Part shown: positions 3,301 to 64,000 of the stretch, piece by piece
How the letters are laid out: the number at the start of each line of letters is the position of its first letter
How positions within the stretch are numbered: position 1 is the stretch's first letter
Source of the DNA: Acorus gramineus
Taxonomy: Eukaryota > Streptophyta > Magnoliopsida > Acorales > Acoraceae
Length of the DNA stretch: 64,000 bases
NCBI GenBank assembly: GCA_030737835.1
Contig: CM060849.1
Coordinates: forward strand, 21,188,074-21,252,073
Reading direction: 5' to 3'
Program-made: the position numbers and the translations under genes
The notes under the pieces: model-generated
The model's input: the letters and a program-made list of their open reading frames with translations, nothing else
The model's database searches: none
What the model was told of the DNA's origin: nothing

Positions 3301-4667
3301 CACATTTCTAATGAGTCAGTTTGCAACACCACCACCCGGACAGATATACCATCACTAATAAATACATTCTCTTGATTTAAAAGTGTATTTCTTTTTATCA
3401 AGAAGACATTTTTGTAGCAAACATAAAGGGTTTACTCACCACCTTCAAAATTTTGTTGGCTTCAGGTAGCAGAATGAAATCAACTTCTAATAATGTAGAA
3501 ACCATATCCTGAACATTATTCTACCTCAAATTTTCCTTCACTGCTGTCTTTCAGTCTTTCATATGCCAGGGCACCACATTGGAACTTGGAAGTAAACATC
3601 ACTATACAACTTTTTTTTTTTCCTTAGAATAACATGCCAAAATGCCTAAATTTTACCTTCGGCGAGATCTCCTACTAGTCAGACATGAAAACTATGCTTT
3701 ATTTCCCTTGTAATATCTGACCAAGCTTCTCCCCTGAAAAAAGGTCAAGCAATTGTTCTTCCAAATCCATAGATGCTCCATTCACTTCAACAAATGCCTT
3801 CCAAATCCAAACCCCAATTGAATAAATCCCTCCCATCAATCAAGCTCTAATCCAAATCAAAAACCCCCAATAAATCCCTCCCATCAATCAAGCTCTAATC
3901 CAAATCAAAAACCCCCAATAAAGATCACATCTTTTCATCCTGGAACAAAGTTTTCTACTATTAAAAAAAGGACCCATTTCATAATCTCCTCAGATTCGAA
4001 AAACCCCTTCCCCCAATTCACATCAAAACCCCAATTTTGACCCAACCCACCAAATGAAACCCGAAACCAACCAGTTTTCGCTCACCTGAGGCAGCGGCAG
4101 GGCGGCGGCGAGGTCGATGAGGAAGTCCGACCTGAGGTACCTCCTAGCGATCAACCTCCGGTCCTCGACGAGCTCCCCCCTCCCGAACACGCGCGAGCTG
4201 GGCGCGACGTACGCCGTCCTGAACTTGACGAGCATCTGCGCGACATAGAACACGTCCGCCACGCACCGCACGGCAGTGACCCCGATCCCGAGGTCCCAGT
4301 CCATCTTGATGCACGACGCCTCGTCGGCCCTCGTCGACGGCAGGTAAAAGTAGAGCGGATCGACGAACAGCGCCACCAGGCACGAGAAATGGAAGACGTG
4401 GTTCCACTTCAGCACGTGCTCGCTCCCCGGGTCCAGCGTCCGCTTCCACCACGGCGTCTTCGTCGTTGACGTCGTCCCTCGCCGGTGGTGGGGGTCCTCC
4501 GCCGCCGAAGGGTAAACCTTGGCGCCGACGATCCTGGGCGGCGGAGGCGGCGCGGGGACAGGGTAACCGGTGGCGATGGAGGGCTTGTGGTTGCCGACAT
4601 CGGCGCAGAATGTGACGGTCTTCTCCTGCTTGAAGTCCGGGGAGAAGTCCGGGAGGGGTTGCAGCAT
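319..4667 (-). CDS. CNGC15: Cyclic nucleotide-gated channel, CNGC15-like (3' end cut by window edge)
   Basis: Five exons are visible: 4086-4667, 2840-3055, 2426-2736, 1799-1910 and 319-555, joined by GT-AG introns with matching phases. They give 486 residues in one frame. Exon 1 (1-194) carries the cytosolic N-terminus and S1-S3, including VDPLYFYLP and FRTAYVAPSSRVFGRGELV. Exon 2 (195-266) carries S4 (YIPRLYLIFPLSSQ) and S5. Exon 3 carries a Cys-rich outer loop and the pore helix (YCLWWGLQNL). Exon 4 begins at the plant pore motif SSYGQNL and contains S6. Exon 5 is the C-linker (TYLQSMTVRLEEWRLKRR) ending at CLDLVRR. The cyclic nucleotide-binding and calmodulin/IQ exons must lie left of position 1. 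CNGC15 in Arabidopsis and Medicago is a nuclear-envelope Ca2+ channel in symbiotic and nitrate signalling; that role is knowledge of the family, not seen here. Start chosen at the only in-frame Met before the conserved region. Exon 1 is far more GC-rich than the later exons. Confidence 0.88.
3823..3918. repeat. Perfect 48-bp tandem duplication in CNGC15 intron 1
   Basis: Two identical 48-bp units, 3823-3870 and 3871-3918, each starting TAAATCCCTCCCATC and ending in ACCCCCAA. They lie in the first intron, about 170 bp from the exon 1 donor. Identity of the units indicates a recent duplication. Confidence 0.9.
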
Positions 4668-30495: not shown

Positions 30496-30591
30496 CAGAG
30501 GGCGATTCAAAAATGAATTGTATCCACTCTCATGTCATGGAAGCAGAGGGCGATTCAAAAATGAATTGTATCCACTCTCATGTCATGGAAG
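30496..30591. repeat. Perfect 48-bp tandem duplication inside the LINE
   Basis: Units 30496-30543 and 30544-30591 are identical (start CAGAGGGCGATTC, end TCATGTCATGGAAG). The duplication arose after insertion or in a recent parent copy. Confidence 0.9.
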
Positions 30592-32382: not shown

Positions 32383-33609
32383 CATTTTTTTATATATATA
32401 TTTTTTTCTCTTTTAAAGAAGAAAATTGGGGATGACAATCCTATAACCCCATATGGAGTGTGACATTGGATTATTCGTTCCTGAGAACTATATTGTGATA
32501 GATAATAATTCATGTTGAATAAGAAACTTTTTTTTATTGTCTTTTCTGTTATTTTCATTGGGAAATGTAAAAATAATTTTTGTTGTTGTTTGATTCACTT
32601 TGGATAAAGCGATGATAAACTAGTTGATAAGGGATGAATAAGAGTTTACGCCTTTTAAAATGACCATTATACCCCCTGTGAATAGTATGAGAGATACATG
32701 ATTGATTTGATAAATGTGACAATTTTTAAAATCTGTGTGAGACTGTTAGGTGAAATAAATTTTTTAAAATGACAGAGAATGATATTTTTATCTATTGGCA
32801 TAGATAAGTCTTGATAAGCAATTCTAACATTTCCTTATAATAGTTATCAGGTTTTATCCTAGCTTATCCAGACATAACTATCGGAGTTTATTATATCAAA
32901 ACAAACAATTTTTTTAAGTTATTCTCATGTATTTTTTATTATTCTTGCCTTATGTTCTACGCCATACGGGGGGTAAAAGAATGTGATGTGGTGACCGCTA
33001 TCCCACGCTCAAGTTTTTTATTTGAAAAAACATTTGAAAAATAAGATTTTGAATAAAGTGATTTAAATAAGCTTGATTATTGAAAAAATAAGCTTTTTGT
33101 ACTAAAAGCTATAAATAATTTTTTAATTAAACTTTCAATCAATTTTTTTTTAATTAAGCCTATTTTTTAGAATACGTTTGACAGTACTTTTCAGCTTTCT
33201 ACTTAATTAAAAGCAGAATCATTTTATTTAAGTGATATCAAACGCCCCCTTCGAATAGGGCGCCGACACACACTTTTTTGCTGATCAAATTAGTAAGCTA
33301 CATTTACTTGTTTGTCCACTCAATTGTTTTGTTGGTTGCTTAAACATTTCTGAGTGTGGTTATACATATAATTATATATATTTTGTTCATTATATGTTAT
33401 TTCAGGTAATATTTTTTGCGTGGGCTGATAATTTAATAGAAAATTGTTAGCATTATTTGCAACGCGCGCATGCACACATGCACATATATTTATAATAAAA
33501 TATTATTTTTATACACGTGTCAAATATACATGAATCTAAATGTACAATATGTAACTACAATATTGATATAAGTAATACGATCAATTTATATATCATGTAA
33601 TAAATATAT
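32383..33609. other. Gene-free AT-rich spacer with MITE-like repeats
   Basis: A probable MITE lies at about 32574-32913, with TTTTTGTTGTTGTTTGATTC on the left and AAAACAAACAATTTTTT on the right. 33014-33250 is the second copy of the repeat at 22801-22995. No gene is seen. Confidence 0.45.
33014..33250. repeat. MITE-like repeat, copy 2
   Basis: Matches 22801-22995 in order: TGAAAAATAAGATTTTGAAT, GATTTAAATAAG, TTTTTAATTAA, then TACGTTTGACAGTACTTTT-like and AAACGCCCCC ends. Confidence 0.5.
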
Positions 33610-34507
33610 GGTGAATTGTCCAAATACCCATACAGTCAACCTCTAATATTTCCTGTGGCCCCATCTATTAAAAATAAATTTCTGTACCTCTGCAGCAAAC
33701 ACCTAATTTTTTTTTCTACCCTTATCCCCTTAGTTCTCCCAGCCCCACAAAATCGCAGTTTTCCCCTTGTAAGTGTATATATGTTTTCTGTAACTTGGAG
33801 AACACAAAATATAATTTTTGTAGATATTACCTGTAAATGCATTATTATGTAATGTAAAAATGGTAACTTGCAAAGCACTAGAAAAACAAACATTAATGCG
33901 TAACATTAATATATATGTAGTTCTTATATTGTCATGAAGTACACACTTGTTGATATTTTTTAAATTTATTTGGGTGTTTGACTAATTGTTGTATCTCTAA
34001 TATAGTTTGAACTGCGCTTTCTTCCTAATGATGTACGCTTGCTAACTCGAAGGTGTAACAGTGGATTCAATTTCAACCAAAATGACATGAAAATAATCAG
34101 ATTAAATACAACATCTTAGTTCATTAGGGTAGGAAAAGAACATCGGAATGTAAACATTAGATGAATTTAAGTACTTTGATGTATTTATTGTGATAAAATA
34201 TTTTTTAAGTGTTATGCATTAACGTATATTTCTAGTATTTTGCAAGTTATCATTTTTATATGACATGCATAGTAATGCGCTTACAGATAATATTTTCAGA
34301 AATTACATTTCGTATTCTGAAAGTTAAAAAAAATATATATGCACTTACAGAGGGAAAACTGTGATTTTGTGGAGTTGGGGGAATTAAAAGGATGAGAGTA
34401 GAAAAAATATTAGGTGTTTGCCGCAGGGGTACATAATTTTTTTTTTAAAAGGTGGGAGCACGGGAAATATTAGGGGTTGGCTGCAAGGGTATTTGGACAA
34501 TTAACCC
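33610..34507. mobile_element. Long-TIR Mutator-like foldback element (MULE-MITE) with 9-bp target duplication
   Basis: An 898-bp element whose two halves are inverted copies. The left arm starts GGTGAATTGTCCAAATACCC; the right arm, reverse complemented, starts GGGTTAATTGTCCAAATACC. Matches continue for about 315 bp per arm, including CACAAAATCRCAGTTTTCCC and TAACTTGCAAARYACTAGAAA. The direct repeat TAAATATAT flanks it at 33601-33609 and 34508-34516, the 9-bp size expected for Mutator-like insertion. No transposase is present. Confidence 0.88.
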
Positions 34508-34929
34508 TAAATATATATAGAATTCAATTGACATATATTTAATGAATATCTTTAATTTTAAATTATTAAAATTTGAATGTATGGATATGATTTATCCAAA
34601 ATTGATTTAAAAATCTTAAATCTTTAAATAAACATATATGATTAATTTTTTTTAATAAATAACACATAATAAAATACTAATTTTATAAACATATCAAATA
34701 AATGTGAAATTAACTAAATTATTAAATTTAAATATGTTAATATGATTTATTTTAATATGATTTTGAAATTTAAAAATATATTTATTATTTCTCTAAATTT
34801 GATTTAAAATATTAAAATTTGAATAAATAGATTTTATTGATTATTAAATTTATAGGAGAATAAAAATAAAAATAAAAATTGGATTTTTTTAATAAATAAA
34901 TGGAATATATATTTTATCAATGCCCAATC

Positions 34930-44643: not shown

Positions 44644-45575
44644 TCAAACAACTTCACCAGCAACAATCATACTATACCCCTTCATCTCTGGCACCACCAC
44701 CACCTCTCCATGGCTCCTCTTGCGGTCATAATAGAACACTGTAAACACCACAAACACCAACCACTTAAACAAGTAAGCCACTGTCATCTTCACAACCCTC
44801 CTCACAATAAATCCTGAGAGAGGTGTGTGATTCACAATGGCTACCACAACAGAACTCAAAACTGATGAGAGCAAACCCTCGTAGCCTCCTTCCTTTGATG
44901 AGTTCCCTAGCTTTCTTGATAGCATCCATGCCATAACAATCTGCTTCTATGACTGACACAACTAGTCCGATCGTCCAAACAGCGAGTAAGTGCAGGTAGT
45001 AAAATGTCGCTAGAAGAGCCATAACAACGATCAGGGCCACCTCTGTAGCACCTTTGATGATCACCATGGAAACAATCATAAAAAACGCGACAGTGAACAC
45101 GTAGGCGAAGGTGAAGAGGCCTATGTAGATCATGGTGATGATGGGCCTCTTCCAGACCCACTTGATCTCCGAAAGCATGGCGCCTAACTGCCTAAGGTGA
45201 GGAACTTGTCGTGGTACATCGTAGCAGAGGAGTGAACCGTTGAGACTAGTGAATACGAAGAGATTATGAAAAATGGGACCATGAAGGCTAGTTGTAGTCC
45301 GGAGTGTTGTTGGAGGTTGTCGAGTAGCCCGGTCATGGTCACCATGGCTTCTTGGCTGTTGGGATCCTCTTTGGGGAGGAGGGCGGCCTTCGAATCCATG
45401 TCGATGATTACAGGATTGAGGGCTAGATTGAATGCGAGTGCGAGGAGGGTGAAGATTGTAAGCACGAGGAGCATGTTTGAAACCATGGGTTTGGGGTTCT
45501 TAAAAGGGAGGGTTAGTGACACCCATAGAATTGAAGAGGTGGTGAGTTTGGGAGTTGGATGATTCCATGATCATG
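44644..45575 (-). pseudogene. Broken member of the multipass membrane protein cluster (paralogue A)
   Basis: Protein similarity to the two intact genes at 46.1 and 52.3 kb runs in order through three frames: PFKNPKPMVSNMLLVLTIFT, SSYSLVSTVHSSATMYHDKF, then KRPIITMIYIGLF and GLVVSVIEADCYGMDAIKKA, then FKWLVFVVFTVFYYDRKRSH. The frame changes near 45187 and again near 44870. The N-terminal part (the ILWVSLTLPFKNP frame) has no Met; a Met-containing start is in another frame. So two or three frameshifts are present in a gene that is single-exon in its paralogues. The stop at 44644 is in the position expected for the family. It could be a recent pseudogene or, less likely, an assembly error. Confidence 0.75.
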
Positions 45576-46118
45576 TTTTCTTGTTTCATGTTTTTTTGGT
45601 TTTCTCGTCTGGCTGATTTACAATCAGTAGTGAATTTATTGAATGGTCTTTTGAATAATTTTCACCGGAAACTACATTGTTTGCAACGATGGGCTGATAA
45701 ATACTAGTTGATGTTGAAGTTTTATTTTAAGAGAGGGGGTTATGCCAAGTACCAAAGTTTTCTTTCTCGACAAGTTTGTAAGGTGTAAACAATTAAGATG
45801 ACTTTAGGAGCAAAAACAAAAACTTAATTATGGAAAATACTATGGTAAATACTTGGTGATCATATCATATACACCGTGCCTTTGACCTGTTGTAATAATC
45901 TTGGGCCACTTCAAAACTCGTTTGAAAATATAATGTTGTATAACACTAAAAGGTTTGATTGATTGTTAAATGAAATGCTTATAAGGTGAAACAGAACTAG
46001 TGAAATGAAAGAGAGACTGCTCCATTTCATAATCTGAACAAGACCCATAGATAATCTTTACAATCAAAACCAGAGGGAGAAGACTTAATCAAACAAATGA
46101 AAACAAAAAACCTGGCTT

Positions 46119-47084
46119 TCAAGGAAGATCAGCATCTACATCATCAAGAGCACTGTTAGGCACCACAGCATAACCCAAGCTCTCCATCTCCACCTTTTCT
46201 CCAGGTCCCTTCTTGCACTCATAGTAGAACACAACAAACCCAACAAACCCAAACAGCTTCACCAGACACATCAAAACAACCACAACCACACCACCCACAA
46301 TCCTACCCAACTGACCCAAATCATCATCCACCAAGTTCACATAACCCAAACCAGTCACCGGACCATACAATAGCAGCAACATCACCATAAGAAGGAACCC
46401 ATCACCCTTTCTTCCTTCAATCAGCTTATTAGCCCTCACGAGCGCATCCATTCCATAACAATCATCTTCAACGATCGATACAGTGAGACCCAACATCCAA
46501 ACCACAGAGAAATGGATGTAAAACACAGTTAAAAAGAGACCCACACAAGTGATTAGGATAACAAAAAACAGAGACCCAGAAGAGAACAATATGAGTGAAC
46601 CCAATATAACTGACATCAGAAGTGCATAAGCGACTGTGATGAGAAATACGTAACCCAAAGTAACGAATGGGTTCTTCCACTTCAATAGAGGAGAACGTAT
46701 CGAGTCATGGAGTGTGACATGTTTGTTGGTGTAAGTGGCCGATGAAGCGTGGACTGTGATGGACATCGCGAGCAGAGAAAGGACGGAGAGGGCGATGAAG
46801 AAGAGAGACTCGATGGAGATGATGAGTCCGATGTTGGTCGAGGGAGGGTCGGTGGGGTTGTAGTCGGAGTCGTCGTCGACGAGGGTCATGAGTCGGGGCG
46901 ACATGAGGAGGTGGTGAGAGAGGGAGAGGGGGTAGTCGGTGAGGAAGACGAGGAGGGCAATGGAGAGTGAGAGTTTGGGGTTCTTTTGGGGGAGCTTGAG
47001 TGCTTCTCTTATGATTGATGGAACACCTAAAGCATGGTTGTTGTTGGCCATGGCGATTGACTGAGCTTCCTGATCCTCCCCCAA
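46119..47084 (-). CDS. Plant multipass membrane protein, paralogue B (321 aa)
   Basis: Single uninterrupted exon. An in-frame Met at residue 12 (MANNNHALGVPS) may be the true start, since the family usually begins shortly before the conserved IIREALKLPQKNPK segment. About six hydrophobic helices are visible (near residues 37-57, 86-112, 138-160, 164-190, 193-214, 255-290). The family hallmark LTVSIVEDDCYGMDAL (about 206-221) is followed by RANKLIEGRKGDGF, and near the C-terminus by GFVGFVVFYYECKK. I recognise a plant family of uncharacterised transmembrane proteins (Arabidopsis At4g19950/At5g44860-like by recall). No enzymatic motif is visible. The low identity to C and A points to an old tandem expansion. 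Confidence 0.8.
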   Translation of the reverse strand: MGEDQEAQSIAMANNNHALGVPSIIREALKLPQKNPKLSLSIALLVFLTDYPLSLSHHLLMSPRLMTLVDDDSDYNPTDPPSTNIGLIISIESLFFIALSVLSLLAMSITVHASSATYTNKHVTLHDSIRSPLLKWKNPFVTLGYVFLITVAYALLMSVILGSLILFSSGSLFFVILITCVGLFLTVFYIHFSVVWMLGLTVSIVEDDCYGMDALVRANKLIEGRKGDGFLLMVMLLLLYGPVTGLGYVNLVDDDLGQLGRIVGGVVVVVLMCLVKLFGFVGFVVFYYECKKGPGEKVEMESLGYAVVPNSALDDVDADLP

Positions 47085-48788
47085 CTTTGGTCTCTGTTTT
47101 TTCTTGTGTTTGTGATACTTTTTTGAGGATTTGATGCTTCTTTTTTCAGTGGATTTGAGGTGTTAAGTGGGGGTGGTTAGTCAGGGGATATGACTCGTCT
47201 GCAGTTTATGTCTTTATGTCTCTCGTTTTTTTTATGCAGATATTATTATAAATAATTATATGGACCCACGAGATTAGATAGATAAAAAAAAAAAAAAATA
47301 TTTTGATTGTTGATCATTTGAGAGCACAGTCAAATGACCATGACTTTTGAATCATATATCAGAGTGTTATAATATGTTCACGCGTTCGTATCGATAAACT
47401 CTATATGAGTGGTCACTACGCCAGATTTTGGAGCGTTCGAGGATCGTCTTGAGGGTCAAATCGATAGATGAAAATTAATTTTACTATTTTTAATAGTTTT
47501 AAATTTATTAGGATTTATTTTTTTATTTTAAAATCTATATTTAGATTTGAATTTGGATATTAGTTAGGATTAAATAAAGATTTATATGTGATTCTAATAG
47601 GTTAGGATTTACAGATTTAGATAATCATTTGAGATTATAATCTTTAATGATTCTATGCTCTATAATACATGTAAACCAAATGATTAGGTAAGTTTTAATT
47701 ATTAAAATTTATTATTTTCATTCGTTTTGTTATTCATGGTAAATATCAATTACATAGAATTTCATCATCCGGTATTTTTTCAAGAAATCAACATATTATT
47801 GAAGCCCATCGTCGAAGAATCAACAGAGTCGTCTGCAGATTTTGTATCTTTGATCGGATCCGTAAAAGAACGTATTTACACACTACATCACTTTTCCATT
47901 TATTTATTTTTATGAGTCCATACAACTCGTTGGGTATAAAAATATATATTTAGTTAGATGGATTATATTATTTTAATAAAATAAAAAATGTATGCCAACC
48001 ACAAATGAGAAAGTAAACAAAATTGCGTTTAATGTTTTTTTTTTAAAATATGATGCCCTCTTATATTAGGTCCGTTTGAAAACACATATTGAAAAGTAAC
48101 TTTTGGTTAAAACTACTTTTTAAGATGATTTTAGACCTTGACTTTTATTGGGATATTTTTTTTTAATTCATGAATCAATATTTAAAAGCAGTTGATTGTT
48201 TAGCAGAGAAAGTTAATTTTCAATTAAAAAAATCGATTTCAATAAAAAAACGTTATTTTTGAGTTTTTCAAAATACGGATTTCAAGAGAAAAATTAAAAG
48301 GAATTCAGCTTTCGATTTTGAATAAAACTGTCCTATTTGACTGTACGATTTTAACTTTTCAATTTTTCAAAAAATAAAAGCTGTTCTAAACGTACAATTA
48401 CATACCTTTGATATAATGGTAACGGATAATGTTATCTTATAAGTTATCCCTCATTCAAACATGTTGCGTTTATATGGGAACAAAGGTTCTCACAATCCTA
48501 GTGGTTGGTTTTTTTAATCGATTTTGATTCACAAACATATACAATAATACAAAATACACATAAATTCTCTTTAAATGGGACTTTAAAACATGCTAACATC
48601 ATTGTCAAGGAATATGGGCCAGCCTCCGTGGAAGGAAATGATAAGAGCATGATTGATATAAATATAGCAAAACAACACGGATAAGTGGATAACGATGTAC
48701 TACATACTAATGTAGATTGCATACTAGTGATGGGCATGCTGGGGGAGGTGACATTCACATTGCTTATTTTTTTATATTTTATATAAGG
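47085..48788. other. Gene-free spacer
   Basis: Upstream of paralogue B. At 47417 CACTACGCCAGATTTTGG resembles a CACTA-type terminus, and 47460-47900 is AT-rich with LTR-like motifs but no boundaries. Near 48065-48390 lies a MITE-like GTTTGAAAAC...TCTAAACGTAC stretch. No gene. Confidence 0.4.
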
Positions 48789-49315
48789 AAAAATTTAAAT
48801 AACCCCCCATAAATTTTCAAAAATTTATAATTCTCTGATTTTTTTTAAGTCCATATAACCTCTTAAAAACACCCATGTAAATTCAAGTAATCTCCTGAGT
48901 TAAACTTCTGTTGACATATAAGGAATATTATGTGAATATTCTATTTGATTAATTATAACTGAATACACAGTATATTAAAAAACCCTACAATGTATTTAAA
49001 ATATAACAAACTTTGTATAAATGTCGATTTTATCTACCTGAATAGGTTATAAAACCTTATCGAAGAGAAGTAAAATCATCATTTATAAAACATTTTTCAT
49101 ATTTTTAACACATTGTAATTTTTTTTGTATACTTTATTTTTTTGTCAGGGTTAAACCAAAAAAGATATTTTCAATCTATAAACAAAAATTTATTTTAGAA
49201 AGTTATTTGAATTTACATTAATGTTTACATAAACACGTGGATTTTAGGAAAAATCACATTGTCACATGGATTTTGAAAAGTTTATAGTGGTTTATATGAA
49301 ATATTCCCTTTAAAT
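48789..49315. mobile_element. MITE family with GGGAAAAA ends, copy 2
   Basis: Colinear with 43312-43850 in the same orientation, about 530 bp. The right end TATTCCCTTTAAAT matches the first copy. More diverged internally. Confidence 0.6.
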
Positions 49316-49419
49316 AAAGATTCGAAAAAGGAATAAGACATTATTACATGGACCCTGTGCAGGCGTCGTGACTTGGCTTGTCTTGACTCGGCCTCTATTG
49401 GTCTATTATATATTCCTTT

Positions 49420-50265
49420 TATGGTATACTTATTCGATCTGCACATGCAACGCACGTGGGGAGGCGAAAAGATGGGCTTGACCATGTCAGAGCCCAATAA
49501 CAGAAAGAGCGGTGATATATGCAATTTTTTTTTATAACCCGGTTTACAATCTATGTGTTATGATAGGATATACTACATTATCATAGCGTATGAGTCTTAT
49601 TATAATATATGATTTAATTTTTTTTTATTATGAAAAAAATATATTAATATATCTCAGTATAGATTTTATTTTATATAATAGCATACATTTCAAAAATGAG
49701 TGTATGATTTAAAAAAAATAAATAACATGAACTGTAATTAAAGCCGTAAAAGTGGCTGTTATCTTTTTCCTAATGAAAATGATGACATAGTCAAAGCCAC
49801 TCGAAGGACCAAATGAGCTGCATATATATACGTGTTATACTCAAGTTTTTAGCTTAAACAAGTGGTGCCATGTTTATTTAAATTTATTTAAGTTAAATAT
49901 AATTTTAAAAAAATAGAATAATCACTCTCTAAAAGCTGTGTCAATAATGTTTTTGAATGATAGTTTACACAAAACTTTATAAATTTTTAAGAATATATAA
50001 CAATTACAAACACTATCAATTTTTCACTTTCGCTATTTAAAAGGTTATTTTCTTACAGTTTCACAACAAAAATATATTTTACAATTTAATCTGACAAACA
50101 TCAAACACGGTTTATTTGGTGTTTTTTTTTCTTCGCTACGTTATTTGGTGTTTTTTCACAGCTCCAACAAACACATCTGTTTATTATTTTTAAAAAGTTA
50201 AAATATATAATCCACGAGCTACAATCACATGTAAATTAAAAATACATCGAATCGAGTTCATATTT
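49420..50265. repeat. Segment duplicated at 51578-52275 (3' flank of paralogue C)
   Basis: Three blocks occur in the same order in both places: ATTCGATCTGCACATG through GATGGGCTTGAC (49430-49500 and 51585-51655), AAGTGGTGCCATGTTTA with AGAATAATCA (49858-49925 and 51959-51992), and ACATCTGTTTATTATT with TTAAAATATATAAT (50170-50215 and 52198-52235). Diverged by many small indels. Confidence 0.65.
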
Positions 50266-50283
50266 TATGTGTAACAATCACTA

Positions 50284-50852
50284 AAAGTATCTCCAACCCA
50301 AGCCTTTAAATATGGAGGGTAGAAAATTCATTTTTAGAGGGTGTTTGTATTTCAACCATCATCCTCTATTTTTTCTTATCATTTTTAAAATTATATAATG
50401 TTATATGAAAATTCATTAATAAATATTATTATTATTAATTCATTTTTGCAAAATATTATACTATTGAAAAGATTTCATTAAGAATTTTAAATTAATAATT
50501 TTTTAATTAATTAAATAAAATAATTCTTGAATAATTAAAGCGTTTGAGGATTTATTGAAAATCAAATATAAAATAATTTAATATTAGTCTCATTTTGAAG
50601 GTCTCGATAGGATCTTTCCAACTCTAGTACTTTGATTAAAAGTTGGATTAACGGATCTAAATATACATTAGGTTGAATTAATTAATGTATAAAGCAAAAG
50701 GTGAAAAAAGTGATTTAGAGGTGACCTCCAAATCTGGAGGGTCAAATCTAAATCTCCAAATTTGAAAGTGGATATGGAGTGTGGTTGGAGCACACCACCC
50801 TCCAAATTTTCACCCTTCAAATTTAGAGATATGAAATGTGGTTGAAGTTGCT
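50284..50852. mobile_element. MITE with TCTCCAACC-type ends
   Basis: Left AGTATCTCCAACCCAAGCC and, in reverse complement, right AGCAACTTCAACCACATTTC. ATATGGAGGGT and ACCCTCCAAATTT motifs are inverted inside. About 570 bp, AT-rich, non-coding; a common plant MITE type (hAT or Mutator-like; not resolved). Confidence 0.55.
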
Positions 50853-51035
50853 TGAAGAAACTTTGTATTTTCTAATAAAATAACATATCACATACACGCT
50901 AAAAAACCAACTCCATAAAATAATATCATTTGTGATGTTATTTACAATAAAATCAATGCATGTATTCTTTAATATTTTTTTAATCAACTACACGATACTC
51001 ATTGGTTGATCAACGTGGAATTTATCTGTGCATGT

Positions 51036-51110
51036 CTGCATCAGAGAAATCCTTTGATGCATCAGGGAAATCCTTTTAATCTCTGCATCAGGGAAATCCT
51101 TTGATGCATT
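51036..51110. repeat. Short clustered repeat, three units
   Basis: TGCATCAGRGAAATCCTTT occurs at 51037, 51058 and 51083. The first and third units are also followed by GATGCAT. Confidence 0.8.
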
Positions 51111-51577
51111 AAGTGATCCACTGTAAACTTGAGATGAGAATAAATTAGTGTTGGATCTTATTAGTGCATGTCAGTATTCAATGAAATGACTAACATGTAG
51201 TATCCCCTCACATATTAAATATATGATGTTTTGTGATAATTTTTTCATCAGAGATTGACATGTCAAATCGATCCTTTGAAGAAATATCGCTTGTCCTACG
51301 CACGGACGATTGGTAGACTTGTCGATGGACCTGCAGCTGATGAAGGTGAAGTCATGTGAACAAAATGGAGAGGCTTATGAGTGACTCTACTTATCTTTCC
51401 TCTTTTGTGGTTAGGGTTTTCGTGGAGTCAGACGAAGCGACATATGAATGAAGAAGCTGAAGAGATTTCCTGGGACAATGTTGGAATTTAAGCAAATGTG
51501 AAGGATATAAGTGTCAAATGAAAGTTTTTAACGGTTTGGTGCTTCTTATAGGTAGTATAGATAGATATAGATATAGA

Positions 51578-52275
51578 TACTTGATTCGATCTGCACATGA
51601 AACACATGTCGGGGAGGCGAAATGATGGGCTTGACAATGTTAAAGCCCATTAATGGAATTGATAATAGAGGTAAAGCCCATATATAGTCAAAGTTCCCTG
51701 AATAAACCTAAAATACAACACCCAGGTTCAAATGAGATCCATGGTGGGATGGATTCTGTGTCGTGGAACACCACAGATATTTAATTCAAGGTTGGGGTTT
51801 TTAGGGTAGTGGTAGTGTTAAGGTTATTTTTCTTTGTATTTGAAACGCTTGGAAACACCCCTTCTCTATTAGGGGTGGTTTTCTTAATGCCAAGTCCCAC
51901 GCTGCGATCCCAAAGGGAGCCTTAAATTTGCAATTGAAAATTAAAGTCTTTAATTTAAATAAGTTGTGTCATGTTTAAAGTAGAATAATCATAATTGAAA
52001 AACTAGATCTAGGATATTTTTTCGATTATAATTTAGTCAAAATTTCATAATTTTTTTTATCATAAACATAAATATCCTGAATTTAAATTAGGAATAACAA
52101 CTATGTCCTTTTATACACACACTTTATCAATTCTTTAATTCAACAAAAAAAAAAAAAAATTTATTATGACGACCATCCATTAACAACCACAACAAGTACA
52201 TCTGTCTATTATTAAAAAAATTAAAATATATAATTCATAACTTATAAGCAAATTAAAAATAGAACAAACATGACC
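51578..52275. repeat. Duplicate of 49420-50265, adjoining the 3' end of paralogue C
   Basis: See the entry at 49420. This copy runs to within about 40 bp of the stop codon of paralogue C, so the duplicated segment is effectively the gene's 3' flank. The short tandem tetranucleotide-like tract (GATA)n lies near 51558-51570. Confidence 0.65.
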
Positions 52276-52312
52276 TATACATCATTGTCACAGGCTCAAC
52301 CGTGACAACAAG

Positions 52313-53167
52313 CTATGCAAGAGCCTCAACCGCAGCAGACGCAGGAGGCGATGAAGGCACGCTAACGTATCCACCCTCACCTCCCCCAACAATAACATGA
52401 TCCTCCCCTCCACATCCCTTCTTGCACTCAAAGTAGAAACCCGTATACACCATCACCGCAAACATCCCCACCAAACAATCCAAACTCGAAAAGCCAATCC
52501 CAATCGCCACCCAAACACCGATCCCAACATCCGCGTTATTCAAACCAACAAAACGCAGAGCGAGCGCGCAAGCGAGAGAGACCAACAACGCGATCGCTCG
52601 CACAATCGCTGCGATGCTGAAGCCCTGTATCTTCCTCCCCTTGATGAGCTCCCCAGCCCTCCCAAGCGCTTCTAGTCCATAACACCCGTCGTCCTCCAAC
52701 ACCGAAGCGATCAACCCCACCGTCCATAACATTGTCAGATAGACATACAAGAGCTCCGCCACGAGATACAACCAATCAGTGAATATGATCAAGAAAACAG
52801 AACCGTTCGAGAGATCGAAGGAGCGGATGATGAAGTGCATGTAGCCTACGATGAGGATGTCGATGTAGATTCGGGTGATCAGTGGGCCTTTGAATCTCTT
52901 ACTGATTGATGAGAAGATGTCACCGAGGGAGGATGAGTTTGGGGTGGCGCATGCGTGTATGATGGCCATGGTGGAAAGCCATGAAACAGAGAAGTTGGTG
53001 ATCCATAACAAGGCTTTGAGGGGTGGGGGGAGATGGAAGAGGTGTTGAGAGAAGGAGAGTGGGGTGGAGATGAGGATTGTGAGGAGGGTGATTGGCAATA
53101 TGAGCTTCCATTTCTTTGTAATTGGGATGCTTAGGGAGTCTCTTACAATTCCCAATGTATCCATCAA
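52313..53167 (-). CDS. Plant multipass membrane protein, paralogue C (284 aa)
   Basis: Single exon, uninterrupted. It starts MMDTLGIVRDSLSIPITKKW, aligned with the IIREALKLPQKNPK region of paralogue B, so the annotated start fits the family. Hydrophobic helices lie at about residues 21-40, 47-68, 95-112, 122-142, 147-160, 190-210 and 222-250. The hallmark GLIASVLEDDGCYGLEALGR carries one extra Gly compared with the paralogues. RAGELIKGRKIQGF and FYFECKKGCGGE follow. The C-terminus is a Gly/Ser/Pro-rich tail. The function is unknown. It is separated from paralogue B by 5.2 kb of repeats. An antisense frame over its 5' half is a shadow. Confidence 0.8.
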   Translation of the reverse strand: MMDTLGIVRDSLSIPITKKWKLILPITLLTILISTPLSFSQHLFHLPPPLKALLWITNFSVSWLSTMAIIHACATPNSSSLGDIFSSISKRFKGPLITRIYIDILIVGYMHFIIRSFDLSNGSVFLIIFTDWLYLVAELLYVYLTMLWTVGLIASVLEDDGCYGLEALGRAGELIKGRKIQGFSIAAIVRAIALLVSLACALALRFVGLNNADVGIGVWVAIGIGFSSLDCLVGMFAVMVYTGFYFECKKGCGGEDHVIVGGGEGGYVSVPSSPPASAAVEALA

Positions 53168-53213
53168 GTTTGATAGGAGGATGAATGATGATTGGGAATA
53201 TATATACTAACAT

Positions 53214-58036: not shown

Positions 58037-58914
58037 CTATGGCTTCAGATTATTGCATGTCCACTTCATCCATAGCCCATAATTTGGGGAAGTGTAGCCT
58101 CCCATCATCAGCTCATCCGCCATGACATTGTATGCCGCCTGCGTGAGGTGTACCCCATCCCAGCTGATCATAGTCTCAGGTGAAGCACAGACCGGAACAT
58201 CTTGCATACCACACATATTTCTCACATCGAAGTTGTAATCTCCACCCTTTCCGCAACATGACTTCAACAAAGAGTTCCTATCAAAACCTGTCCAACAAAA
58301 ATAAAATGAGGCCTGAAGTGTATTGTGTAATATTTACCAATTGTATTGAGAGAGATCAAAACATGTATGGAAAAACAAACCTAGGACTGAAGCCCGAGAG
58401 AAGAGCTGTAGGAACGAATTGTAGTAATCTGCGTACATAATCTTGATCCTTGGATACTCGATCCTGAGCTTACTCAAGGCATTCGTGAGTTGGAGGTTGT
58501 GGAATTCTGCGAAGCTATTGAAATTTTTTAGACAATTGTTCTGGTCGTAGGCACCAGGGTTTCTGTCGTAGAATGTCGTTAGATAGCTAGGCATGCAGCC
58601 AATTGGGAAATTCCCAGGAACTATCAGCTGGGCAGCCCCATGATCGATGACAGCCTGTGCATCCATCAAAACAAAGTACATGAGAGTTACATTAGATGAA
58701 ACAATGTATCCATATGCTATTTCTTCTTATGATCAAATCCACACTAGGGCCTACTACTATATTTACTGTTATTGAGCTCAATAGAATTAAATTTGGTTTG
58801 CGTGTAACTAAATAAAGGAAAACTTACTCTAGCAGCCTCAATATGGACATGTACCAACAGAAGAGAAGATACCAACAAAAAGAAAAAGAGATCATCTTGC
58901 TTTCTAAGAGCCAT
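58037..58914 (-). pseudogene. Truncated GDSL esterase/lipase gene
   Basis: Three exons with good junctions, 58828-58914, 58381-58654 and 58037-58287, give an open frame of 203 residues. Normal plant GDSL esterases have about 360-390. Exon 1 is only a signal peptide (MALRKQDDLFFFLLVSSLLL ... EAAR). The protein then jumps to the middle of the family (AVIDHGAAQLIVPGNFPIGC). Block I with the catalytic GDS serine and block III (GxND) are both missing, while block V with the Asp-His pair (SWDGVHLTQAAYNVM) and SCCGKGGDYNF remain. The 173-bp first intron is too short to hide the missing exons, so an internal deletion joined exon 1 to a later exon. It may still be transcribed but should lack esterase activity. 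The closest group is the sinapine/acetylajmalan esterase type. Confidence 0.8.

Positions 58915-59331: not shown

Positions 59332-59383
<52 letters not shown>
59332..59383. repeat. (TA)n microsatellite, left border of GC-rich element copy 1
   Basis: About 26 uninterrupted TA units, directly abutting GGGGTGCGCC. A shorter (TA)n, 60285-60297, borders the other end. Confidence 0.95.
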
Positions 59384-59385
<2 letters not shown>

Positions 59386-59613
59386 GGTGCGCCCGTGCGC
59401 CCCCCGTCGTCGACCGTGCGATCGACGTACTCGTCGATCGTGCGATCGACGTACTCGTCGATCGCACGGTCGACGTTTTTTTAAAAAAAAAAACAAAAAA
59501 AACCACGACCTGTCGCTGTCGTGTCTCTCTCTCACGCCGTCTCTCTCTCTCTCTCCCTGTCTCTCTCTCTCTCTCTCAATCTCTCGAAACCACTCACTCT
59601 CTCTCCCTCTCTC

Positions 59614-59680
<67 letters not shown>

Positions 59681-60284
59681 AAACCACTACCGACCCCCAT
59701 CGACGACGACCGTGACCCCCTGCCGACGACGCCCTTCCGACCCCCTCGACCCCCTTCCGACCCCCGTCTCTCTCTCGAAACCACTCTCTCTCTCTCTCGT
59801 CGACGACGACGACCCCCATCGACGTCGCCCCCGTCACCGCCATCGACGACGACCCCGTTGACCCCCGTCGACGACACGACGACCGCGACCCCCGTCGCTC
59901 CCGTCGACGACGACCGCGACCGACTGCACGGACCGACCCCCGTCGACGATGACCGCGCGACGTCGACGGGGGTCAACGGGGTCGACGGGGGTGACGGGGT
60001 CGACGGGGGTGACGGGGGTGACGGGGGCGACGGGGGGCGCGGTCGTCGTCGACGGGGGTCGGTCCGTGCAGTCGGTCGCGGTCGTCGTCGACGGGAGCGA
60101 CGGGGGTCGCGGTCGTCGTGTCGTCGACGGGGGTCGGTCTCGATCGCGATCGTCGACGACTGGTTTTTTTGTTTTTTTTTTAAAAAAACCTCGACCGTCC
60201 GATCGAGGTCCATCGATCGGACGGTCCAAAAACGGGGCGCACGATGGGGTGCACCGTGCGCACGGTCGCACCCCATCGTCCGTG
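59384..60284. mobile_element. GC-rich foldback element in a TA microsatellite, copy 1 (complete)
   Basis: 901 bp of very GC- and CpG-rich DNA in AT-rich surroundings, bounded on both sides by (TA)n. Left end GGGGTGCGCCCGTGCGC; the right end reverse complemented contains GATGGGGTGCGACCGTGCGC, so the ends are inverted repeats. Subterminal hairpins: GTCGACCGTGCGATCGACG at 59409-59427 pairs perfectly with 59456-59474; a second pair built on CGATCGGACGGTC lies at 60190-60226. T/A stretches (59475-59500, 60164-60188) follow each hairpin. Inside are (CT)n tracts (59521-59690) and a perfect 90-bp inverted repeat. Long Arg/Ser/Pro-rich open frames are low-complexity and not genes. The setting recalls rice Micron elements, which sit in TA microsatellites, but the relation is not shown. 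Confidence 0.75.
59860..60135. repeat. Perfect 90-bp inverted repeat with 96-bp loop
   Basis: Arms 59860-59949 and 60046-60135 are exact reverse complements, rich in CGTCGACGACGACC and GACCCCCGTCG. The loop holds direct repeats of ACGGGGGTG and GTCGACGGGG. It could form a very stable cruciform or RNA hairpin. Confidence 0.95.
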
Positions 60285-60299
60285 TATATATATATATGT

Positions 60300-61779: not shown

Positions 61780-61980
61780 GGCATCGGTGAGGGATCGTCC
61801 GATGGCACTGACGGAGGATCGTCCTATAGCGCTGGTGCAAGATCGAAGACGATGAAGGAACTGCGTCGGTGGAGGATCCTTCGATGGCGTCAATAAGGGA
61901 TCGTCCGACGTCCAACGACAAAGGATCGTCCAACAGCGTTAGTGAGGGATCGAAAGACGATGAAGGATCACGCACCATCT
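61780..61980. repeat. Degenerate minisatellite-like GGATCGTCC repeats
   Basis: About seven diverged units of some 30 bp built on GGATCGTCCGATGGCGYTR and GGTGAGGGATCG, with two units carrying GATCGAAGACGATGAAGGA. GC-richer than the neighbours. Confidence 0.65.
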
Positions 61981-62269: not shown

Positions 62270-63498
62270 TTATAAGTTTAATATATGTACTTATATTACG
62301 TAATTAAAGACCATTCATTACTGAGTAGTCAAAATTAATCCTTCAACTTTTGTTGAATGTCAATTTATAGTGTACCACCTGGCTGCTAGGTCTCTTCCAA
62401 GTACGGAGTCCAAAAAAGGTACTTATTTTACCCAAGTATAGAAATGATTTGTTTGTTAATCTATCAAATATTCAAAATATGTAATCAAATCCGACTTCAA
62501 GTTCCAACGTCTATGTTGCTCTATTTAAATGTTTTGGACGATTGCACGTGGATATGATTAAAAAAATAATAATAATTAACTTTACTTGATACATATAAAC
62601 ACGATGAAAATAAATTGTTTATCTCTTTAATTGATGCCAGCGGATGTCTCCCTCACAGATATAATATTCTCTATTCCACCGAATCAAATTCCACCTATTC
62701 TAATTAAAGACCTTTAATAATGTTGGCATGTGCTGTCAAATTTACAGTCAAGAACAGGTGGCAAGATATTGAAAGGGAAAAGTACCGGGAAAAATGATAA
62801 AAAAAAATCTTTAAAAAATTAAAAATATTTAAATTAATAATTTTTTAAAATTATATATATATAAAAAATCTCATTTTATAATTTTGAAAACATAAAAGAT
62901 TAATCTACCCTTATATATTTAGATCTTTAATTAACATATTTCATATTTTTTAACTTTGTTAAAATATTTCAACTTTTTAATTTTATAAATGTATTTCACA
63001 CATTCTCATGTAGAACTTTATTTTACTCTAAATTTTTTGTGAGATAAGTGTCAAGATAGTTTGAATTTTTAATGATGAACTTCATTAAATGTTGTGTTTC
63101 TTTAAAAAAAATGGATACATACTAATGATGCCATAAAAAACGTGAATAACCAAACAAAAAAAATGAATAAGAATTTGGAGTATTGGGGCTCAACACAGAT
63201 TTAAATTACATATTATGATTATATACAATGAAAAATGATAAACAACATCAGGTAGGATATATATAAGAAACACACAATATGATATATATACTAACAAAAC
63301 CTCAAGAGGGATTGATTTGGATCATATAGAGAGATATTGTTGTTTTGTAGGAAAAATAGATTTTTGGTGTGGAGTAACCTAACAAGGATTAGAGGAAAGT
63401 TAATGATTTAATTAAATAAGGGTAAATTAGTCTTTTGTTTTTTCAAAATTGTGAAACAAGACTTTTTTAAGTATAATTTTAAAAAACAAGAAACGAGA

Positions 63499-63502: not shown

Positions 63503-63542
<40 letters not shown>
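63503..63542. repeat. (TA)n microsatellite, left border of GC-rich element copy 2
   Basis: About 20 uninterrupted TA units, joined directly to GGGGTGATGGGGTGCGCC. Confidence 0.95.
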
Positions 63543-63545
<3 letters not shown>

Positions 63546-64000
63546 GTGATGGGGTGCGCCCGTGCGCCTCCGTTCGCCCCCCGTCGTCGACCGTGCGATC
63601 GACGTATATATCGTCGATCGCACGGTCGACGTTTTTTTTTTTTAAAAAAAAACGTCCCGTCTCTCTCTCGCTGTTCTTTCTCTCTCTCGAAATCTCTCGA
63701 AACCCCCGTCTCTCTCTCGTCGACGACGACGACGAAATCGACCCCCGTCGACGACGACCGCGACCCCCGTCACCCTCGTCGACGTCCGTCACCCCCATCG
63801 ACGATGACCGCGACCCACCCCCGTCGACGACGACCGCGACCCCCGTCGACGACTGCACGGACCGCCCCCCGTCGCTCCCGTCGACGACGACCGCGACCCC
63901 CGTCGCCCCCGTCACCCCCGTCGACACGGTCGACGTTTTAAAAAAAAAACGTCCCGTCTCTCTCTCGCTGTTCTTTCTCTCTCTCGAAATCTCTCGAAAC
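63543..64000. mobile_element. GC-rich foldback element in a TA microsatellite, copy 2 (cut by window edge)
   Basis: Same orientation and design as copy 1: GATGGGGTGCGCCCGTGCGC end, the identical 19-bp palindromic arms (63586-63604 and 63612-63630) here 7 bp apart, a T/A homopolymer stretch, CT-rich tract and CGTCGACGACGACCGCGACC units. From CACGGTCGACG the unit starting CGTCCCGTCTC is repeated: 63653 and again at 63950, a 297-bp period. The right end is beyond the window. Confidence 0.75.

What the first reader, a model, noticed from the sequence alone, without database searches (positions are those of the whole stretch)
59332..60297. GC-rich foldback element family residing in TA microsatellites
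Two copies (59384-60284 and 63543 to the edge) are each joined precisely to a (TA)n tract. They share terminal GATGGGGTGCGMCCGTGCGC, identical 19-bp palindromic arms and T/A spacers, yet differ inside. This is the picture of a mobile family with (TA)n target choice. Rice Micron elements are known to behave so, but the CpG-dense, GTCGAC-rich foldback interior here is unlike any element I recognise. Two copies within 5 kb suggest local abundance.
Basis: partly seen in the sequence, partly recalled or inferred. Interest (0 to 1): 0.8.

Follow-up and report, generated by a model that had tools for sequence, protein, structure and literature searches.

The report
Acorus foldback transposons in TA repeats
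A sweet-flag-like plant genome carries many copies of a hairpin-rich, GC-rich jumping element that sits almost only inside runs of TATATA; such TA-loving elements are known in other plants, but this family is unusual in keeping CpG letters that plant transposons normally lose.

Summary
The host (Acorus or very near: one protein 94% identical to A. calamus) carries many relatives. I read 40 loci holding 42 elements: 33 of 42 have (TA)n of at least 8 bp at both ends, 8 at one end. A second set of 19 ends, chosen without looking at flanks, abuts TA in 19 of 19. Background positions do so in 0.7%. The ends are conserved and mostly of two kinds, (TA)n-GGGGGGCGATGGGGTGCG and (TA)n-(CA)n-CGGACGATGGGGTGCG. 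Copy 1 (59384-60284) has lost the outer bases of one; copy 2 is 1433 bp and ends in TA beyond the window. This is a TA-microsatellite-targeting foldback family of the MuTAnT/SaTar/Micron kind, probably moved by a Mutator-like transposase; no partner, target duplication or empty site was shown. Unusual: CpG observed/expected is 1.4-2.0 in 33 of 33 elements, and CpG transitions between copies are hardly in excess (ratio 0.8-1.3), whereas Mutator-like transposase loci of the same genome show ratio 2.9 and CpG 0.35-0.83. That apparent resistance to CpG decay is the point worth pursuing.

The parts
59332..59383 (.). (AT)26 tract at left edge of copy 1
59384..60284 (+). copy 1, 901 bp, 64% GC, CpG o/e 1.59; outer bases of its left (G-type) end, GGGGGGCGAT in other copies, are missing
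59384..59405 (+). left terminal module GGGGTGCGCCCGTGCGCC..., small hairpin
59408..59475 (+). left hairpin: 20-bp arms 59408-59427 / 59456-59475 around an extra 24-bp unit (nested hairpin)
59476..59502 (+). T7-A11-C-A8 block closing the TIR; inverse at 60164-60188
59524..59679 (+). (TC)n-rich stretch
59690..60163 (+). CpG-dense GTCGAC/GACCCCCGT minisatellite interior, itself a foldback: arms 59860-59958 and 60037-60135, 98 of 99 complementary, the one mismatch a CpG/TpG change
60164..60188 (-). T/A block of right TIR
60193..60226 (-). right hairpin, 14-bp arms
60241..60284 (-). right (CA-type) end: palindrome 60241-60279 plus outer bases to 60284; read inward CACGGACGATGGGGTGCGACC
60285..60297 (.). 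TA tract at right edge of copy 1 (13 bp)
63503..63542 (.). (TA)20 tract at left edge of copy 2
63543..64000 (+). copy 2, cut by the window edge; whole copy is 1433 bp in the assembly (L035:617-2049) with a CA-type right end against a 16-bp TA tract
63585..63631 (+). hairpin of copy 2, 20-bp arms identical to those of copy 1, 7-nt loop
63639..63703 (+). T/A + CT module, repeated at 63936-64000 (98.5%, period 297): tandem growth inside copy 2

Best explanation
A dispersed, non-autonomous foldback DNA transposon family of Acorus (or a very near plant) that inserts into (TA)n microsatellites, most likely mobilised by a Mutator-like (MULE) transposase made elsewhere. Shown: many copies with conserved ~120-bp hairpin-rich ends of two main kinds, nearly always directly against TA tracts, in otherwise different surroundings, with interiors built from one CpG-dense repeat vocabulary. 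Inferred: a transposase binds the hairpin ends, cuts at the G- or CA-terminus and inserts into TA runs (including runs at the edge of an earlier copy or in the centre of another inverted repeat); the TA (and CA) runs then lengthen by slippage; a target duplication would be invisible inside TA. The mobile, TA-targeting part is near certain (about 0.97); the MULE part rests on likeness to MuTAnT/SaTar (about 0.65).
For: Whole-copy search of the host genome: 653 first-look candidates, 40 scored, 258 matches. Of 42 elements at 40 loci, 33 have TA of at least 8 bp at both ends and 8 at one end (74 of 84 ends; tally by eye); 679 of 98,736 background positions (0.69%) in the same loci lie within 3 bp of such a tract end. 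All 19 ends that were new abut TA. 33 two-ended elements: 403-1433 bp, median 850; TA at 66 ends 8-77 bp, median 24.5; G-type with CA-type end in 20 of 33 (17 by script, 3 by eye), a second end pair in 6. Stacked elements share one TA tract in L024, L039 and L084. Same anatomy as MuTAnT and SaTars. MULE transposase domains are plentiful here: 1162 candidates, 150 scored, the 150 over the curated cut-off.
Against: No target duplication: none of the 103 ends read offers a non-TA site with a duplication. No autonomous partner: 0 of 30 MULE loci read (1.5 kb to each side of the domain) carries a family end, and by coordinates the nearest listed family site to any of the 150 scored MULE hits is about 45 kb away (by eye). 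Empty sites not tested. No MULE terminus was compared letter for letter with this one. 10 of 84 ends in the first set do not show TA of 8 bp or more: 4 unresolved (L011 next to an N gap, L043, both of L038), L015 with 7 bp of TA, L039 first element with an interrupted run, L020, L021 and L042 apparently truncated, and L045 plainly non-TA.
Confidence: 0.67

Rival explanations
1. Spread by recombination between TA tracts (circles or broken copies with TA ends), without transposase cutting: the SaTar circle model.
For: No copy read lies at a non-TA site with a duplication; rice Micron likewise has 0 of 510 with a duplication (table). The SaTar authors propose this route. Stacked copies share TA tracts. 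Length of the (TA)n and (CA)n next to the ends varies widely.
Against: Ends are conserved up to the TA tract in most copies, as defined cutting gives; MuTAnT, 11 of 15 guayule SaTar families and pineapple elements have members with 9-10 bp duplications outside TA.
Confidence: 0.2
2. A TA-targeting foldback element of another superfamily (hAT, Tc1/mariner, PIF/Harbinger or unclassified).
For: No duplication and no transposase seen with these ends; foldback form does not fix the superfamily.
Against: TA tracts plus G-rich terminus plus long modular ends fit the described MULE group best.
Confidence: 0.12
3. A satellite cluster or assembly artefact without mobility.
For: Tandem and palindromic interior.
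Against: Dispersed copies on many contigs with conserved ends and different flanks.
Confidence: 0.01

Closest known systems
MuTAnT (Medicago truncatula, PMC4486113)
   Same: Foldback of modular segments, (TA)n flanks, G/C-rich distal ends of variable number, non-autonomous copies of 0.2-1.6 kb
   Different: Autonomous partner and 9-nt duplications known there, not here; ends here are of two distinct kinds (G and CA) in 20 of 33 two-ended elements; sequences not compared (supplement not read)
SaTar elements, including Micron = rSaTar2 (guayule and rice, PMC5907723)
   Same: (TA)n-flanked TIR elements, stacked through shared microsatellites; Micron also lacks any copy with a duplication (0 of 510)
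   Different: Guayule families are 380-1120 bp with TIRs of 40-250 bp in the table read; no CpG-dense minisatellite interior mentioned in the parts read; sequences not compared
Ac-mMITEs (pineapple, PMC8449440)
   Same: (TA)n flanks, Mutator-related, clustered; the microsatellite-inserted copies are less methylated than the others
   Different: 210-570 bp and tens of thousands of copies; CpG content not discussed in the passages read
Tm1 (Meloidogyne, PMC3169594) and Tetris (Drosophila virilis, PMC4079207)
   Same: Composite TIRs with internal tandem repeats; Tm1 also has two different outermost motifs, one per end
   Different: Animal elements; Tm1 shows no target preference

Membership tests
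(TA)n-targeting MULE group (MuTAnT/SaTar/MiM) | Copies flanked by (TA)n | tested here: met
   74 of 84 ends of 42 elements and 19 of 19 further ends; control 0.69%
(TA)n-targeting MULE group (MuTAnT/SaTar/MiM) | Long terminal inverted repeats | tested here: met
   copy 1: 92 of 122 aligned columns identical between its two ends, score 84 against shuffle maximum 38
(TA)n-targeting MULE group (MuTAnT/SaTar/MiM) | 8-11 bp target duplication at non-TA sites | tested here: inconclusive
   no copy at a non-TA site with both ends intact among those read
(TA)n-targeting MULE group (MuTAnT/SaTar/MiM) | Partner with MuDR-type transposase sharing the ends | tested here: inconclusive
   0 of 30 MULE loci read carry the ends within about 1.5 kb of the domain; 150 of 1162 candidates scored
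(TA)n-targeting MULE group (MuTAnT/SaTar/MiM) | Empty sites that are plain (TA)n | not testable with these tools
   only one assembly reachable
Foldback transposons | Hairpin-forming ends built of sub-repeats | tested here: met
   three ends fold with z -10.9, -9.2, -9.5; nearby flank +0.7
Micron (rice) | Sequence similarity to Micron ends | not tested
   Micron sequence not held

The most novel reading that the evidence does not exclude
A plant transposon family that escapes CpG decay: because its copies stay unmethylated in TA tracts, or because its hairpins keep rewriting each other, hundreds of CpG islands are being seeded at TA microsatellites across the genome, and the GTCGAC minisatellite inside keeps growing.
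Probability: 0.3. Interest if true: 0.65.

Novelty: new variant of a known kind. Interest (0 to 1): 0.45.

Why it matters
It brings TA-targeting foldback elements to Acorales, the sister lineage of all other monocots, with a family whose members diverge yet keep CpG far above expectation. In the same genome, MULE transposase loci show the usual plant pattern of CpG loss. In pineapple, microsatellite-inserted elements are less methylated than their relatives elsewhere. If TA tracts shelter elements from methylation, this family would make that directly testable.

Tried and rejected
Segmental duplication of the two window copies: the 2-kb flanks, searched against the whole window (E 1e-4, dust on), match only themselves and short internal repeats (the right flank of copy 1 and the left flank of copy 2 physically overlap, the copies being 3.2 kb apart). 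Other family traces in the window: 0 hits with dust on; with dust off, 5 non-simple short hits per copy with E of 0.017 or more (9 of the 10 at 46837-46888, which repeats, whose lists I had cut at 2000 characters). Bacterial or viral origin: terminal 20-mer 0 stretches in IMG/VR, 2 in GTDB; arm 20-mer 2 in IMG/VR; taken as chance, no TA run within 200 bases (GTDB) or in the fetched locus (IMG/VR). Coding origin: one frame of copy 1 gave 96 protein hits, best E 2.5e-3; the 7 of 96 that I read share by eye only low-complexity stretches; one frame of copy 2 gave none. TA tracts in 15 of the 30 MULE loci belong to AT-rich, ~200-bp tandem-repeat-like sequence of other MULEs, not to these ends. First-draft idea that the ends are ragged: dropped, the genome shows two conserved end kinds.

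Full report
Observation. Copy 1 runs from 59384 to 60284 (901 bp) between TA tracts of 52 and 13 bp; copy 2 starts at 63543 after 40 bp of TA. The terminal 20-mer and the 20-bp hairpin arm are shared far beyond chance, the three visible ends align well above shuffles, and each end folds into hairpins (z -10.9, -9.2, -9.5; flank +0.7). Module order inward: GGGGTGCGmCCGTGCGC, C-rich spacer, hairpin, T-run then A-run. The interiors use the same CpG-dense words in different order; copy 1 has a second foldback with 98 of 99 bases complementary, copy 2 a 297-bp tandem step.

Host. One window protein is 94% identical over its whole length to an Acorus calamus protein.

Genome-wide copies. After 13 unanswered tries the host search answered: 653 candidates at first look, 40 scored, 258 matches; the number of real copies is not known beyond these. 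I took 30 loci from that call and 14 stretches; four of the 30 overlap others, leaving 40 loci with 42 elements (L024 and L039 hold two). Two further interior-like stretches, in L017 and L032, had no resolved ends and were left out. By eye, 33 of 42 elements have TA of 8 bp or more at both ends, 8 at one end, 1 (L038) is unresolved: 74 of 84 ends. The control in the same loci, more than 120 bp from elements, is 679 of 98,736 positions (0.69%). A search with the 121-bp CA-type end gave 605 candidates, 40 scored; 19 of its 41 strong places were new, and the 19 of 19 read abut TA, one of them (L087) with an interrupted run.

Ends. The two main kinds are (TA)n-GGGGGGCGAT-GGGGTGCG with small variants and (TA)n-(CA)n-CGGACGAT-GGGGTGCG. 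In 33 two-ended elements the pair is G with CA in 20 (17 by script; L013, L014 and L028 by eye), a second pair (GGGGAGTGWTTACC, GATAAATGATTAGG and like) in 6, and others in 7; L010 joins one end of each pair. Copy 1 has lost the outer GGGGGGCGAT. Lengths are 403-1433 bp, median 850. In L026 and L041 the outer flanks are inverted copies of each other (scores 81 and 53; next 28), so these two seem to sit in the centre of another inverted repeat. Stacked neighbours share one TA tract in L024, L039 and L084, as SaTars do.

CpG. Observed/expected CpG is 1.43-1.99 in 33 of 33 elements; 32 flanks have a median of 0.66, range 0.14-1.69; two GC-rich exons in the window 0.99 and 1.12. Transitions at CpG against other C/G sites: 2.34% against 2.34% in 78 global alignments of 13 of the 33 elements, chosen as long and similar (ratio 1.00); 2.21% against 1.70% in 109 blastn pairs (1.29); 2.73% against 3.40% in ends only (0.80). 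The control, 308 blastn pairs of 30 MULE loci of the same genome at 91.8% mean identity, gives 12.3% against 4.28% (2.87), and CpG o/e 0.35-0.83. Pairs are not independent, repeats align ambiguously, and the control differs in base composition, so this shows a clear contrast, not a cause. Low methylation, constant rewriting between hairpin arms or copies, and recent spread remain open. In pineapple, microsatellite-inserted elements are less methylated than their relatives elsewhere (passages).

Mechanism. See the best explanation. MULE transposase domains are abundant, and Mutator is named among the top three transposon categories of A. tatarinowii at 5.01% (passage), but no partner was found: 0 of 30 MULE loci read carries a family end, and the nearest listed family site to any of the 150 scored hits is about 45 kb away (by eye). 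No duplication or empty site could be shown.

Literature seen. MuTAnT: outline, results and discussion. SaTar: passages and two sections. Pineapple, carrot, 207-genome survey, Tm1 (47), three Acorus genome papers: passages only. Tetris: abstract and section list. Micron, TAFT and FARE originals: not seen. The survey reports Micron mainly in Poaceae and Rosaceae and its main text has no word 'Acorus'. Searches (15 of 339 listed; 7 of 7; 10 of 12; 12 of 52) listed no paper on such a family in Acorus or on its CpG content, judged by titles and abstract beginnings; most subscription journals and the supplements were not searched.

Noticed in passing
62841-62930 and 63400-63486: AT-rich inverted repeat (about 90-bp arms, 81%) ending 16 bp before the TA tract of copy 2; looks like a separate MITE-like element.
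   Followed up: partly
L049-L057, L067, L070, L072: MULE loci of this genome carry ~200-bp AT-rich tandem repeats with (TA)n inside, beside the transposase domain.
   Followed up: partly
33600-33714 and 34402-34516: Inverted repeat with 115-nt arms, 83% complementary, 687 nt apart.
   Followed up: no
61790-61967: Diverged repeat (two ~72-bp stretches, 79%) rich in GATCGTCC words between the two copies.
   Followed up: no
58040-58726: GDSL-lipase-like exons on the - strand, Pfam score just under cut-off, with no F[GN]DS motif on that strand in the window; likely a fragment left of copy 1.
   Followed up: partly
44765-53206: Three - strand ORFs (44765, 46119, 52313) that look by eye like paralogues; the two scanned have no Pfam match.
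   Followed up: no
3821-3922 and 30496-30591: Two unrelated perfect tandem duplications, both of 48-bp period.
   Followed up: no
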